This document shows positions 40,045-45,624 of a DNA stretch of 64,000 nt, in pieces. The notes below the pieces were generated by a model that saw only the letters and a list, made by a program, of their open reading frames with translations, was not told where the DNA came from and searched no databases. The DNA comes from Pirellulales bacterium. Lineage in GTDB: Bacteria; Planctomycetota; Planctomycetia; Pirellulales; JAEUIK01. Each line of letters starts with the position of its first letter. Within the stretch, counting starts at the first letter, position 1. A program made the position numbers and the translations under genes. The stretch is from NCBI GenBank assembly GCA_019745975.1, contig JAIESQ010000031.1, positions 62,001-126,000 of the forward strand, read 5' to 3'.

Positions 40045-40707
40045 GAAGCGGGGCTTGGAGTTTCGCCCGATCTTAGGGCGGCGTAGCGGGTTGGGTCGAA
40101 TCCGCGATTGTAACGCGACGCGTCGGCAGTTGGCAATGAGGCGGCGCGTGCCAGATTGCGGCACTTAAAGGCACGCTTGAACGGCCTGTCCTACGTCTGG
40201 GGCCACAAGTCTCAAGCCTGGGGCTCTCGCCTCTGACCTCTGGACTCTGGCCTCCACTCGGGGGTCCCCCAGAATAAAGTTGTCCGGGAATTTGCGTCCG
40301 GGTGCGTCCGGGTGTGTTGATATTGGACCCGAACTCAAATAGGGGGCACAAGTTGGGGCGAATGTAACATCGCGCATTTTGCGTCCGGGTGATCGTCCGG
40401 TTTGCGTCCGGGTGTTTTGACGTTGGACCCGAACTCAAATAGAGGGAACAACTTGGGGCAAATGTAACACCGCGCAGTTTGCGTCCGGGTGGCGGTATCT
40501 ACCTTCCCCCTCTGATCTCTCGCCTCTGGCCTCTCGCCTGTTCCGTAGTTTTGCGTCAGGTTGGCGTTGTGGCTTGTGGTCGGTGGGTAGTGGCGAATGG
40601 CTGGCGGTCCGAGGGCACATACGCACGGTTACCCTGCGTTAACGTCGCAATGCCTTTGATATGATTCGCACTTCGTTACCGACGATCGACGACCCCGGTG
40701 CCCGCGA
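40045..40707. other. Repeat-rich intergenic gap upstream of the defence island
   Basis: No gene is visible in 663 bases. It holds two simple-sequence patches built on CCTCTGGCCTC (about 40213-40256 and 40500-40530) that bracket the 100-bp-period direct repeat. A reverse-oriented patch of the same motif occurs at about 45241-45262, on the far side of the defence genes. Confidence 0.6.
40294..40491 (+). repeat. Direct repeat, two 88-bp copies with exact 100-bp period
   Basis: Copies at 40304-40391 and 40404-40491 are about 90 percent identical. Each is bounded by GCGTCCGGGTG and contains TTGGACCCGAACTCAAATAG and a GGGGC-AATGTAACA block. The boundary motif GCGTCCGGGTG occurs at 40294, 40304, 40381, 40404 and 40481. 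No open frame spans the copies, and no palindrome dominates them. Confidence 0.8.
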
Positions 40708-41643
40708 ATGCCTGACTTGCAGGAGGCCATTGCTCGATTCGGCGCCGAGGCGAAGGCCAAGCTCGCCAATCCCGGCGCCACGGGCGAGCCCGAGGATCAA
40801 CTTCGCGCCCCGCTCGAAGCGCTCTTCGCCGATCTCGCGGCGCTTTGCGGCTTCAAACCCGGCTCAGTCGCGTCCGTTGGCGAGACCTCGCTGGCGACCC
40901 TCAAGACGCGCCCCGATTACGCGATCACGCTGCGAAATGTGCTGGTCGGCTTCGTCGAAGTCAAAGCGCCAGGCAAAGGGGCCGACCCGCGGCGCTACAA
41001 AGGGCACGACAAAGAGCAATGGGAAAAGCTGCAATCGCTCCCCAATTTGCTCTACACCGATGGCAACGCCTTCAGCTTCTGGCAGAACAGCGAGCTTGTC
41101 GGCTCGATCGTCGAGCGACAGGGAAACATTGAATCGTCGGGCACGAAACTCGCTGCGCCGCAAGAGCTCGTGGCGCGATTCGACAAGTTCCTGCGCTGGG
41201 AACCGATTCCGCCCAAGTCGGCCGCCGATCTAGCCAAAGTCGCGGCCCGGCTTTGTCGCCTGTTGCGCGACGAGGTCACCGAGCAACTCGCCCAGAAAAG
41301 TCCGGCTCTGACGGCGCTGGCCGCCGACTGGCGCAAGTTGCTATTTCCGGAAGCCAACGACGAGCAGTTCGCGGACGGCTATTCCCAGGCGGTCACGTTC
41401 GGGCTGTTGATGGCCCGCTCCAGCGACATCCGACTGGCCGACGGGCTCGACCAGGTCGGCCGTCAACTCGGCAAAACGAATTCGCTCATCGGCACCGCGC
41501 TGCGCATCCTGACCGACGAAGTCGGCAATGAGGCCACGCTGAAGACATCGCTGGGCGCGCTGGTTCGCGTGCTCGACTCAATACCAGCTTACGATAGGGT
41601 TGAATTTCGCACGCTCGCACTACGACGCCGAAATCCAGTATGA
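40708..41643 (+). pseudogene. 5' fragment of a large type ISP/IIG-like restriction-modification enzyme
   Basis: The 311 codons begin with MPDLQEAIARFGAEAKAKLA and carry a nuclease-like domain (TRPDYAIT at about 68-75, VGFVEVKAPGKGADPRRYKG, HDKEQWEKL, LPNLLYTDGN), that is, D and E-x-K of a PD-(D/E)XK fold. A helical linker ends at LGALVRVLDSIPAYD. I recall full-length relatives of about 1000 residues, in which an N6-adenine methylase (NPPY) and a target-recognition domain follow; here both are lost. The frame closes on a TGA shared with the start of the cytosine methyltransferase gene (ATGA). The truncated product may still be made. Confidence 0.78.
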
Positions 41644-42848
41644 TCGAGCACATGACCGACGAACTGCAACTTGTTGACCTGTTTTGCGGCGCCGGTGGAA
41701 TGACGCTAGGCTTCGTTAGGGCAGGCTTTGAGGCGGCCGCCGCTTACGACAATTGGGAATGCGCGACAAAGACATACGAGCGCAACTTAGGCGAACACAT
41801 TCAGTGCGCGTCGATTTGCGAGGATTTGGAGCTTCCCGCAGCCAGAGTGATCGTGGGCGGCCCGCCCTGCCAGGGTTTCTCGTCTGCCGGCGCTCGTCGT
41901 AGTAACGATCACCGCAACACGCTTGTCGCCGTGTTTGCTCGCCTTATCGCTAGGCATCGACCACATGCGTTCGTCTTCGAGAACGTTGAAGGTTTCCTGA
42001 CCGGTGGCGATGGCCGTTTTATCTTCGATTTGCTCGACCCGCTGATCGAGGCGGGTTATCGCGTTCACCTGAGGAAGGTGAACGCCGCAAACTTTGGAGT
42101 GCCGCAGCACCGCAAGCGGGTTTTGGGCATTGGCGGCTTGGGTTGGGATCCAACGTTTCCCGCGCCGACTCATAGCGCGCACGGAGCGCCCGGCGCACTT
42201 TTGGGCGGCACACATCTGCCCTTGACACCGTCGATCACCGACGCCTTGTGCGGGCTCCCTGCCGCGACGATCGGAAACGACGGCAACGATCACGCCTATT
42301 CGCTGCTCGAAGGGCTCGACCTGGAGCGGGCGCGGCGTCTGAGACCAGGCCAACGAATGCGCGACTTGCCTGAGGAGCTTTGGCATGAAAGCTACAAACG
42401 GCGCGCCTATAGGCGTGTAATGGACGGCACACCCGTCGAGAAGCGCGGCGGAGCGCCTGCCGGTCTACGCCGGCTGCGGGCGGACGAGCCTTCAAAGGCC
42501 ATTACTGGCGCAGCAATAAACGAGTTCCTCCATCCCGCAGAAGATCGTCCGCTAACGGTGCGAGAATGCGCACGCATCCAAACATTTCCCGACGACTTTG
42601 AATTCGTCGGATCACGGCGCGACCGTGCTCAGCAGATTGGTAACGCCGTACCACCGCATTTCGCGGAGGTAATAGCGCGAACCTTATTGCACGACTTGCG
42701 TACGAGGCTTGAAAACTCGAACCCGGGCGCGCTACTGAGCTTCACGCCGACTCTTTCCAGTGGCATGAGTCCGGTTCTAAATGAGGTTAGGAAGAAGGTT
42801 GAGAAGAGGTACCGTATCCACGCCAGGCAGCCGATGTTATGGGACTGA
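41640..42848 (+). CDS. C5-cytosine-specific DNA methyltransferase
   Basis: A 402-residue m5C methyltransferase. Motif I is LVDLFCGAGGMTLGF (SAM binding). Motif IV is VGGPPCQGFSSAG with catalytic Cys77, motif VI is FENVEGF, motif VIII lies around FGVPQHRKRV, and motifs IX-X include RECARIQTFPDDF and QQIGNAVPP. The target-recognition region between VIII and IX is about 130 residues; its DNA sequence specificity cannot be read. It starts inside the stop codon of the truncated upstream gene and overlaps the nuclease gene by 10 bp. Composition looks less GC-rich than the flanks, suggesting transfer. Confidence 0.93.
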   Translation: MIEHMTDELQLVDLFCGAGGMTLGFVRAGFEAAAAYDNWECATKTYERNLGEHIQCASICEDLELPAARVIVGGPPCQGFSSAGARRSNDHRNTLVAVFARLIARHRPHAFVFENVEGFLTGGDGRFIFDLLDPLIEAGYRVHLRKVNAANFGVPQHRKRVLGIGGLGWDPTFPAPTHSAHGAPGALLGGTHLPLTPSITDALCGLPAATIGNDGNDHAYSLLEGLDLERARRLRPGQRMRDLPEELWHESYKRRAYRRVMDGTPVEKRGGAPAGLRRLRADEPSKAITGAAINEFLHPAEDRPLTVRECARIQTFPDDFEFVGSRRDRAQQIGNAVPPHFAEVIARTLLHDLRTRLENSNPGALLSFTPTLSSGMSPVLNEVRKKVEKRYRIHARQPMLWD

Positions 42849-43897
42849 GTCGCGCACAAATGGCAATCGTGCAGAAGGCTTGCGCGCTTGGTGCGGGGAA
42901 GCAGGGGGTCGCGCTCTCAGAAGCCGCTTGCACATACCTCCTGGCGATCGAAGTGCAAGATATGGCTCTTGGTTCTCATTTCCCGGAACTTCCGCGTAGC
43001 CTAATTCCGTTCTTTGGTCCTGAGCCGTTCGCTGATCGCGAAATCCCCGGATTGCAGTTCCTAACATTGTTCGAGCGTCTCGTTGGACTGGCGGTCGACG
43101 CCGATACGTATTTCTCGTGCTTGGCTTGGCTTCACAAGCTTCGACTCAAATACGAGCTTGTGCTAAAGACGCAAGCCATTCCAACGATGGATCAAGTGGG
43201 CCCGCGCGGCCTGCTTCAGTATGGGACCGCACCAGACGCGGCGCTTCCGCCACTCATGCAGTGGCGAAAGTGGTTTTTTGACATCGACAACAGAGCGGCA
43301 CAACTGACAGGGTACCTCTTCGAGCCGATTCTCGCGGCTGCCCTTGGCGGTACCCCAGCCAGCGCGAGGAAAAGCCCCGTCCGTCGGCGGAACAACTCAT
43401 CGAAGGGACGGCAGGTCGACTGCGTACGCGAGAAGGACGCTTACGAGTTCAAGATCAGGCTGACAATAGCGGCATCGGGGCAGGGGCGTTGGTCTGAAGA
43501 GCTTGACTTTGCACCGGATTGCCAAGCTAGCGGTTTTCGGCCGATCCTGGTCGTCCTTGACCCAACGCCAAACTCCCGGTTGTCAGAACTACAACAGGTC
43601 TTCCGAGAGAATGGGGGTGAAGCGTATGTCGGAGACGCGGCATGGCAGCATTTGGAGTCGGAAGCCGGTGACGTGATGGGACGTTTCTTAAAGCAATATG
43701 TTCAGCAACCGATTCAGGCACTCCTGGCTGCCGCGCCAGTTGCTCTCCCACCATTAGTGGCGACCGATCGAGGTGAGTCAATCGATCTGATGATTGGCGA
43801 CGATTCGATTAGAATCGCGCGCTCGCGTGAAACAGTCGCCGCCGAAGACGACGACCTAATCCCCGATGACATTGATGATCAGGTGCCAGGTGTATGA
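42839..43897 (+). CDS. Putative type II restriction endonuclease, PD-(D/E)XK-like
   Basis: A 352-residue protein translated from an ATG inside the end of the methyltransferase gene. The likely active site is Asp194 in GRQVDCVREKD with Glu203 and Lys205 in AYEFKIR, the spacing of a PD-(D/E)XK nuclease. Glu162 (FEPIL) may be the additional helix acid. No helicase or methylase motifs are present. Position between an m5C methyltransferase and a Vsr gene makes a cognate restriction enzyme the best reading. I could not place it in a named family. The C-terminus is acidic (EDDDLIPDDIDD). Confidence 0.72.
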   Translation: MGLSRAQMAIVQKACALGAGKQGVALSEAACTYLLAIEVQDMALGSHFPELPRSLIPFFGPEPFADREIPGLQFLTLFERLVGLAVDADTYFSCLAWLHKLRLKYELVLKTQAIPTMDQVGPRGLLQYGTAPDAALPPLMQWRKWFFDIDNRAAQLTGYLFEPILAAALGGTPASARKSPVRRRNNSSKGRQVDCVREKDAYEFKIRLTIAASGQGRWSEELDFAPDCQASGFRPILVVLDPTPNSRLSELQQVFRENGGEAYVGDAAWQHLESEAGDVMGRFLKQYVQQPIQALLAAAPVALPPLVATDRGESIDLMIGDDSIRIARSRETVAAEDDDLIPDDIDDQVPGV

Positions 43898-44367
43898 GTT
43901 CTTTGCGCATCCGAGCACCGGTTTCGTCCTCCCTCGTCGTGCGCAGGGTGATGCAAGCGAACACCGGACGCGAGACACATCCGGAGCGATTCGTCCGGCG
44001 TTTTCTGCACCGTTGCGGCCTGCGATTCCGAAAGGACCGCCGTCCCGTCCCTGCGCTACGATGCGCCGCTGATCTCGTGTTTCCTGGTGCAAGACTGTGC
44101 ATCTTCGTCGACGGCTGTTTCTGGCACGGGTGCCCAAAGCACTTCCGCGTGCCAGCATCAAATAGCGCTTGGTGGGCGGAAAAAATTGAGGCAAATCGAG
44201 CGAGGGACCACCGCAACAACGCGATTTTGAGACGCGATGGTTGGTGTGTAATTCGGATTTGGGAGCACCAAGTTAACCCCCGTTTTTTGGCCGAGCTGGA
44301 GTCGAGGATTCTAAGAAGAATGCGCAGGACCCACGGTCGCCAAAGGAAAGTCAACGTCCTTTCTTGA
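43894..44367 (+). CDS. vsr: Very short patch repair (Vsr) endonuclease
   Basis: A 157-residue Vsr nickase that cuts next to T in T:G mismatches left by deamination of 5-methylcytosine. Motifs are MQANTGRETHPERFVRR and CAADLVFPGARLCIFVDGCF (Asp metal ligand), then WHGCPKHFRVPASNSAWWAE and DGWCVIRIWEHQ. The first ATG overlaps the nuclease stop (ATGA). The Met at residue 20, where family similarity begins, is an alternative start. Its presence supports a genuine m5C-producing system. Confidence 0.92.
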   Translation: MSSLRIRAPVSSSLVVRRVMQANTGRETHPERFVRRFLHRCGLRFRKDRRPVPALRCAADLVFPGARLCIFVDGCFWHGCPKHFRVPASNSAWWAEKIEANRARDHRNNAILRRDGWCVIRIWEHQVNPRFLAELESRILRRMRRTHGRQRKVNVLS

Positions 44368-44407
44368 CTCCGCTGCTAAGGGCGCCGTCCCTGATGACGC
44401 CGAATCG

Positions 44408-44752
44408 ATGCCCGACGAAATCGAATACGACGCCGCGCGGCAGCGCTTGCTCGTCGGCACGGGCTACATCGACAACGTGCCGGCCGCCGTGTGGGACTAC
44501 GAGGTCTCGGGCAAGCGCGTGTTGACGCAATGGTTCAGTTATCGTAAGAAAAATCGGGAGCGGCCGATCATCGGCGACCGCCGCCCGCCGTCGAAACTGG
44601 GAGACATTCAGCCCGACCACTGGCTGGCCGAGTACACCAGCGAACTGTTGAACGTGCTGCACGTTCTGGCGCTACTCGTCGAGATGGAACCGGCCCAATC
44701 GCAACTTTTGGAGGCGATCTGTGACACGCCGACACTTGATTTCGGAGGATGA
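44408..44752 (+). pseudogene. 3' fragment of the same large restriction-modification enzyme
   Basis: The 114 codons contain YDAARQRLLVGTGYIDNVPA, VWDYEVSGKRVLTQWFSYRK and DHWLAEYTSELLNVLHVLALL. They match the extreme C-terminus of type ISP/IIG-like enzymes, which recall has as VWxYxVSGxxVxxxWxxYR followed by ELLxLLxVLxxT. With the fragment at 40708-41643 it forms the two ends of one ancestral gene; about 500-600 central codons are missing and the m5C cassette occupies the gap. The ATG at 44408 may be fortuitous. Confidence 0.75.
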
Positions 44753-44951
44753 ACTGCGAGCAGCCGGAGCCTTGGACGTGCCGCCCGAGTGGCGCAAGTC
44801 GCTGAGCGCTGGGTGCAAGCCTCGCGAGCAAATGCTGTTCGCCGACGACGACCTGTACCCTGAGGCGCAACCGTCCATGGCGGCCGCGGCGGATGAGTGC
44901 GACGCCGATGAATCCGAGGACGGTGACGAAGCCGCGGACGACGAGGAGTGA
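44721..44951 (+). CDS. Small acidic hypothetical protein downstream of the RM remnant
   Basis: A 76-residue protein starting at a GTG with an excellent GGAGG at 6-nt spacing, overlapping the end of the restriction-modification fragment by 32 nt. The N-terminal part (RRHLISEDELRAAGALDVPPEW) is helical, and the C-terminus is strongly acidic (DADESEDGDEAADDEE), as in DNA mimics or chaperone-like tails. It was probably coupled to the ancestral large enzyme gene. No family recognised. Confidence 0.65.
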   Translation: MTRRHLISEDELRAAGALDVPPEWRKSLSAGCKPREQMLFADDDLYPEAQPSMAAAADECDADESEDGDEAADDEE

Positions 44952-45148: not shown

Positions 45149-45414
45149 TTGCGCCGCTCGGCGCGGCAAGAGAACATCACCGAGCACGAGCCGAGTCGGC
45201 CCAGCCAGGGGCACACGGAGGAACAGGCAAGAGGCGCCATGTCAGAGGCGAGAGGTCAGAGAAGATAAGGATTCCCTCGCTGCGCCTACGACCGCAAGAG
45301 TAACACGCGCCGGAACTGGAATGAACGACCCTTTCAGGGTCGGAGGTCGATTCGGACCGTGTTCCCAGGCCTGCGGCCTGGGCTGACAGAACCGGCCCTT
45401 CAGGCCGGGAAAGG

Positions 45415-45624
45415 TGGTGCGTTTCACGCACCCTACAGATGCTGTGGTGCGTTTCACGCACCCTACAGATGCTGTGGTGCGTTTCACGCACCCTACAGAT
45501 GCTGTGGTGCGTTTCACGCACCCTACAGATGCTGTGGTGCGTTTCGCGCACCCTACAAATGCTGTGGTGCGTTTCACGCACCCTACAAATGCTGTGGTGC
45601 GTTTCACGCACCCTACAAATGCTA
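45415..45624 (+). repeat. Tandem array of seven 30-bp palindromic units
   Basis: Seven units of exactly 30 bp, each beginning TGGTGCGTTTCACGCACCCT and ending in ACA(G/A)ATGCTG. Each carries a 7-bp stem GGTGCGT/ACGCACC with a TTC loop. Units 1-4 read ACAGATG and units 5-7 ACAAATG; unit 5 has one further change in the loop/stem, and the last unit ends in CTA, the stop codon (TAG) of the minus-strand gene. There are no variable spacers, so it is not CRISPR. Confidence 0.95.

What the first reader, a model, noticed from the sequence alone, without database searches (positions are those of the whole stretch)
40708..44951. m5C restriction cassette occupying the centre of a different, gutted restriction-modification gene
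Seen directly: a 311-codon N-terminal nuclease-like fragment (40708-41643) and a 114-codon C-terminal fragment (44408-44752) of what looks like one ~1000-residue type ISP/IIG-like enzyme. Between them sit a complete C5-methyltransferase, a PD-(D/E)XK-like nuclease and Vsr, linked by ATGA or 10-bp overlaps and starting inside the stop codon of the first fragment. The inferred event is replacement of about 500-600 codons (the adenine methylase core) by another defence system, leaving it under the old promoter. It is an exchange inside a defence gene rather than beside it. The truncated nuclease end could also have been kept for function.
Basis: partly seen in the sequence, partly recalled or inferred. 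Interest (0 to 1): 0.8.

Follow-up and report, generated by a model that had tools for sequence, protein, structure and literature searches.

The report
Restriction cassette inside gutted restriction gene
In this planctomycete genome a complete bacterial immune cassette (a DNA methylase, its partner cutting enzyme and a repair nuclease) has taken the place of the middle two thirds of a different immune gene; the swap is real and unusually clear, because a sister copy of the uncut gene is present in the same assembly, but swaps of this kind have been described before.

Summary
Confirmed. Window 40708-41577 and 44379-44749 are the two ends of one gene, a TaqII-like type IIG enzyme with an ISP-type specificity domain. 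Both match the same profile (positions 4-277 and 941-1042 of 1086) and the same intact orthologues. A diverged intact sister copy (C-terminal part 94% identical in DNA) lies on contig C46 of the same assembly and fixes the breakpoints: 2801 bp (41578-44378) stand where the intact gene has 1996 bp (about 665 codons, the whole adenine methylase and most of the specificity domain). The insert is a complete, independent cassette: Dcm-like m5C methylase, ApaLI-like PD-(D/E)XK nuclease, Vsr. A planctomycete from Lac Pavin carries the same cassette (78% DNA identity) outside any such gene, with only the first codons of vsr left. The ATGA overlap of fragment and methylase is therefore inherited from the cassette, not adapted to its new place. 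Another planctomycete genome (G009) has a different type II pair inside a copy of the same gene family, so the pattern recurs, though there the host gene is broken elsewhere too. Replacement of one restriction gene by another defence gene is documented (PabI and hrgC loci). No evidence that the remnants kept a function.

The parts
40708..41577 (+). 5' end of a TaqII-like type IIG/ISP-TRD gene, codons 1-290: nuclease (PD...E-V-K motif, PDYAI..FVEVKAPG) and helical linker, up to just before the adenine methylase domain
   Evidence: PDLC03631 4-277; 81% DNA identity to intact G033 gene; in G033 the N6_Mtase match starts at residue 308
41578..41643 (+). left junction: 35 bp of unknown origin (41578-41612), then the cassette leader shared with the Lac Pavin cassette from 41613; fragment-1 frame reads through to TGA at 41641-41643
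41640..42848 (+). C5-cytosine DNA methyltransferase (Dcm/HaeIII/HhaI superfamily; GGPPCQGFSSAG and FENVEGF motifs)
   Evidence: Pfam DNA_methylase E 1e-62, TIGR00675; 83% identical to L061, 57-62% to four other homologues
42839..43897 (+). ApaLI-like PD-(D/E)XK restriction endonuclease, D194-x8-E203-x-K205
   Evidence: Pfam RE_ApaLI E 3.5e-4, below its cut-off; 4 of 5 homologues match, best E 1e-5; motif invariant in 5 homologues; next to the methylase in the relatives
43894..44367 (+). Vsr short-patch mismatch endonuclease, ATGA overlap with the endonuclease gene
   Evidence: TIGR00632 119 bits (cut-off 98), Pfam Vsr E 2e-16; E. coli Vsr structure 1cw0 E 1e-13
44368..44378 (+). right junction: 11 bp between the vsr stop and the first base homologous to the intact gene
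44379..44752 (+). 3' end of the same TaqII-like gene (end of the specificity domain); ORF from ATG 44408
   Evidence: PDLC03631 941-1042, Type_ISP_C; 94% DNA identity to C46
44721..44951 (+). small acidic-tailed ORF overlapping the 3' end of the TaqII-like gene; also behind the copies in C46, G033, G009 and G048

Best explanation
A complete m5C type II restriction-modification cassette with its own Vsr replaced the methylase core and most of the specificity domain of a resident TaqII-like type IIG gene, by a recombination that joined at or near codon 290 on the left and about ten codons before the fragment-2 ATG on the right. The old enzyme is dead, because it lost its methylase and most of its target recognition. 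The cassette should work as an ordinary type II system: the methylase marks a site as m5C, the nuclease cuts unmarked incoming DNA, and Vsr starts repair of T:G mismatches that arise where m5C deaminates. Shown: homology of both ends to one gene, breakpoints, completeness of the cassette, its existence elsewhere. Inferred: that the replaced copy was intact before, the order and mechanism of recombination (no long repeats, integrase or insertion sequence recognised at the junctions), activity, recognition site, transcription.
For: Same profile and same intact proteins at both ends. The intact sister copy on C46 diverges exactly at 41577 and rejoins at 44379. Both ends of C46 share exactly 77 bp with other contigs, the mark of a k=77 assembly graph, so the stretch before the breakpoint leads both into the cassette and into an intact core. 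Cassette orthologue of 78% DNA identity in L061, covering 41613-43918, and methylase-endonuclease pairs at about 51-62% protein identity in G009, G004, Roizmanbacteria and Anammoximicrobium, none with the TaqII-like gene in the DNA fetched around them. L061 keeps the vsr start behind the same ATGA, so vsr was part of the ancestral cassette. A different type II pair sits inside the same gene family in G009.
Against: No genome of the same genus is held, so an intact gene at this very chromosomal site was not seen. The 77-bp shared stretch means the assembler chose which continuation follows the left flank; the junction exists in either phasing, but its chromosomal address could be exchanged with that of C46. 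The 35 bp at the left junction have no known source. The endonuclease assignment rests on a sub-threshold Pfam match, a motif and linkage; the structure model was poor (mean pLDDT 58) and its fold search uninformative.
Confidence: 0.87

Rival explanations
1. Composite system: the retained nuclease fragment and the C-terminal specificity fragment are kept for function and work with the m5C cassette.
For: Both fragments are open, the nuclease motif is intact, and the break lies at a domain boundary just before the methylase. Unique changes in fragment 1 are mostly silent (0-3 replacement, 5-14 silent).
Against: The arrangement occurs in one genome only among those sampled. The cassette relatives have no such fragments in the DNA fetched around them. 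A type IIG nuclease domain without its specificity domain has no known targeting (established knowledge). Recent loss gives the same substitution pattern.
Confidence: 0.06
2. Assembly chimera: the cassette was joined to the ends of the gene by the assembler.
For: The left breakpoint coincides with an assembly-graph branch (77 bp shared with C46).
Against: The right side is homologous to a different part of the same gene, and no exact stretch shared with C46 there reaches 77 bp (longest 69), so no false branch is possible on that side by that route. The window has no N runs. A de Bruijn contig needs reads spanning the left junction (general knowledge of assemblers; the reads were not available).
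Confidence: 0.05
3. Two-step history: the cassette landed beside or inside an already decaying gene whose core was deleted independently.
For: Core deletions and frame breaks occur in this gene family: G027:C149 joins codon 77 to about 894, G199, G183 and G002 have frame breaks, G328 and G048 keep only C-terminal parts.
Against: The cassette fits the gap with only 35 bp and 11 bp of unassigned sequence, which is simplest as one exchange.
Confidence: 0.3

Closest known systems
Replacement of the PabI restriction-modification locus by hrgC in Helicobacter pylori, and of a type II R gene by a PabI-family system in Campylobacter cuniculorum (PMC4615327)
   Same: One defence gene or cassette replaces the middle of another; in the hrgC case 78 bp of the 5' end and 88 bp of the 3' end of the old locus remain
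   Different: Here a three-gene m5C cassette with Vsr replaces the core of a single type IIG gene and leaves much longer ends (870 and about 370 bp)
TaqII/TaqIII Thermus-family type IIC (IIG) enzymes (PMC5587805)
   Same: The gutted gene's intact relatives align over 99% of their length with the enzymes annotated as type ISP on two Thermus aquaticus plasmids, including p61, the plasmid on which the paper places taqIII (38-39% identity); single chain of about 1100 residues with an ISP-type specificity domain
   Different: The window copy lacks the methylase and most of the specificity domain; its recognition site is unknown
Type ISP enzymes LlaGI/LlaBIII
   Same: Methylase and specificity domain related (PDB 4xqk, 5ffj)
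   Different: No helicase-like ATPase domain in this family
m5C type II systems with Vsr
   Same: Dcm-like methylase, separate nuclease and Vsr with overlapping genes
   Different: Endonuclease only weakly matched to a known family (ApaLI-like); located inside another restriction gene

Membership tests
TaqII-like type IIG/IIC enzyme (the host gene) | N-terminal nuclease, N6 methylase and ISP-type specificity domain in one chain | tested here: not met
   Met by the intact relatives (G033: PDLC03631 4-1043/1086, N6_Mtase, Type_ISP_C). Not met by the window copy, whose methylase and most of its specificity domain are gone: it is a remnant.
Type ISP proper | helicase-like ATPase between nuclease and methylase | tested here: not met
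   No helicase domain in the intact relative by Pfam; 1071 residues against 1578 for LlaBIII
Type II m5C restriction-modification system with Vsr | C5 methyltransferase with catalytic PCQ and ENV motifs | tested here: met
Type II m5C restriction-modification system with Vsr | cognate restriction endonuclease | tested here: inconclusive
   PD-(D/E)XK residues invariant in five homologues, adjacent to the methylase in the relatives, weak ApaLI-like match; activity and site not testable here
Type II m5C restriction-modification system with Vsr | Vsr endonuclease | tested here: met
   TIGR00632 above its cut-off, E. coli Vsr as nearest solved structure
Replacement of one restriction gene by another defence gene | both ends of the old gene flank the new genes, intact form known | tested here: met

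The most novel reading that the evidence does not exclude
This TaqII-like gene family is a recurrent exchange site in Planctomycetota: unrelated restriction systems are repeatedly swapped into its interior (m5C-Vsr cassette here; N6/N4 methylase plus nuclease in G009; a T5orf172-helicase restriction-like gene next to a C-terminal remnant in G048), perhaps because recombination within a dispensable defence gene is selected or tolerated.
Probability: 0.2. Interest if true: 0.55.

Novelty: new member of a known kind. Interest (0 to 1): 0.4.

Why it matters
Restriction systems are known to be mobile, but events are seldom caught with both ends of the replaced gene, an intact sister copy and an independent copy of the incoming cassette all available. 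Here the breakpoints are fixed to the base on the left and to within a few bases on the right, and a second case with a different system in the same gene family makes the question whether defence genes themselves are preferred landing sites testable by counting.

Tried and rejected
Mobility signs: no integrase, insertion sequence or long target duplication was recognised at the junctions (ORFs and junction sequences inspected; the only shared motif is GACTC, too short to count). Phage or plasmid origin of the cassette: no relative of the endonuclease in phages or viral contigs, and on plasmids only one weak partial match. Structure of the endonuclease: AlphaFold model with four sequences had mean pLDDT 58 and no significant PDB match (best MspJI, E 0.09). 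Selection test on the remnants: too few changes to decide. Synteny of the locus: the right-hand neighbour gene in G004 is not next to ffh, so an empty site could not be shown.

Full report
OBSERVATION. Fragment 1 (40708-41643, 311 codons) and fragment 2 (44408-44752, 114 codons) match one PADLOC model, PDLC03631 (REase_MTase_IIG, 1086 positions), at 4-277 (E 2e-84) and 941-1042 (E 7e-33); fragment 2 also matches Pfam Type_ISP_C. Intact orthologues in other genomes of the order (G033, G027) match fragment 1 with their first 292 residues and fragment 2 with their last 110-114.

THE INTACT SISTER COPY. The window lies on contig C201 of a 204-contig assembly. Contig C46 of the same assembly carries the missing core and C-terminus in one open frame of 814 codons, followed by the same small ORF. 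C46 begins with exactly 77 bases identical to window 41501-41577 and diverges at 41578; the match resumes at 44379. Its other end also shares exactly 77 bases with another contig, C66. Exact 77-base overlaps at both ends are what a de Bruijn assembly with k=77 leaves at branch points (inference from general knowledge of assemblers), so the same left stretch continues both into the cassette and into an intact core. On the right no shared exact stretch reaches 77 bases (longest 69), so the cassette-to-fragment-2 junction cannot come from that kind of branching. The two copies look like paralogues rather than strain variants: 94.3% DNA identity in the C-terminal part and different 3' flanks beyond the shared repeat unit. 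C46 contains the motif TTTGCGTCCGGGT of a repeat found in this genome and in none of 39 relatives, which supports that it belongs to the same genome. C46 stops 77 bases into the gene's 5' part, so its own N-terminus was not seen. The insert is 41578-44378 (2801 bp) in place of 1996 bp, about 665 codons.

WHAT WAS LOST. In the intact G033 protein the N6 methylase match starts at residue 308 and the specificity domain spans 675-1038; there is no ATPase domain. The break at codon 290 therefore leaves the nuclease and its helical linker and removes the methylase and most of the specificity domain. The family aligns over 99% of its length with enzymes on two Thermus aquaticus plasmids, one of them p61; the published paper places taqIII on the 61-kb plasmid and describes TaqII/TaqIII as type IIC enzymes with ISP-like specificity domains (PMC5587805).

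WHAT CAME IN. The methylase is a clear C5 enzyme (Pfam E 1e-62). The endonuclease has an ApaLI-like match below cut-off, found in four of five homologues, and an invariant D-x8-E-x-K. Vsr is above its curated cut-off and nearest to E. coli Vsr among solved structures. Relatives of the methylase-endonuclease pair occur in a Lac Pavin planctomycete (L061, 78% DNA over window 41613-43918), G009, G004, a Roizmanbacteria and an Anammoximicrobium genome. No part of the TaqII-like gene was detected in the DNA fetched around them. In L061 the ATGA junction and the first codons of vsr remain and then the sequence diverges. So the cassette was three genes long before it entered the window's locus, and the overlap of the methylase start with the stop of fragment 1 is a by-product of a pre-existing ATGA.

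RECURRENCE. Of the copies of this gene family at 60% identity or more in 397 genomes of the order, several are intact (G033, G027:C71, G149) and many are broken. G009:C76 holds family codons 133-632 and 642-681, then a nuclease gene and a convergent N6/N4 methylase gene (Pfam E 1e-23; PADLOC REase_II E 2e-6), then codons 917-1070. That gene also lacks its first 132 codons and has a frame break, so the order of events there is unknown. G048 keeps only codons 975-1069 next to a T5orf172-ResIII gene. G027:C149 has a plain internal deletion. In 392 genomes spread over the phylum, the full-length relatives found at 60% identity or more (G483, G640, G729) were intact.

MECHANISM AND RIVALS. The simplest reading is one exchange by illegitimate or short-homology recombination. 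A two-step history (deletion, then insertion, or the reverse) cannot be excluded. Retained function of the remnants is possible but unsupported: substitutions unique to fragment 1 are mostly silent, which recent loss also explains. An assembly artefact is unlikely for the reasons above, but the chromosomal address of the gutted and the intact copy could be exchanged.

COMPARISON WITH THE KNOWN. PMC4615327 describes replacement of a type II R gene by a PabI-family system and of the PabI system by hrgC with 78 and 88 bp of the old locus left. The present case is of that kind, with a larger cassette, longer remnants and an intact copy in the same assembly. I therefore file it as a new member of a known kind. 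The broader literature on mobile restriction systems is only partly held in the library.

Noticed in passing
window 40290-40492: A dispersed repeat (89-nt units bounded by TTTGCGTCCGGGTG) lies upstream of the fragment; 28 matches in this genome and none in 39 relatives, about 50 for the longer stretch. Nature unknown.
   Followed up: partly
window 45414-45623: Seven copies of a 30-bp tandem repeat (GTGGTGCGTTTCACGCACCCTACAGATGCT, 98% identical); single units lie behind both copies of the TaqII-like gene.
   Followed up: partly
window 44721-44951; L003:4999-5277 (-): A small ORF with an acidic tail overlaps the 3' end of the TaqII-like gene in several genomes; T. aquaticus p61 also has a small overlapping ORF there, of different sequence. 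Possible partner protein.
   Followed up: partly
L023:4753-6377 (G009:C76): A different type II pair with convergent genes whose stop codons overlap sits inside another copy of the same gene family.
   Followed up: yes
L094:5690-8649 (G048:C302): C-terminal remnant of the family directly behind an 838-aa T5orf172-ResIII gene, with a truncated second copy of that gene upstream.
   Followed up: partly
L061:4066-4120: The Lac Pavin cassette has lost vsr after about nine codons although the methylase and endonuclease are intact.
   Followed up: yes
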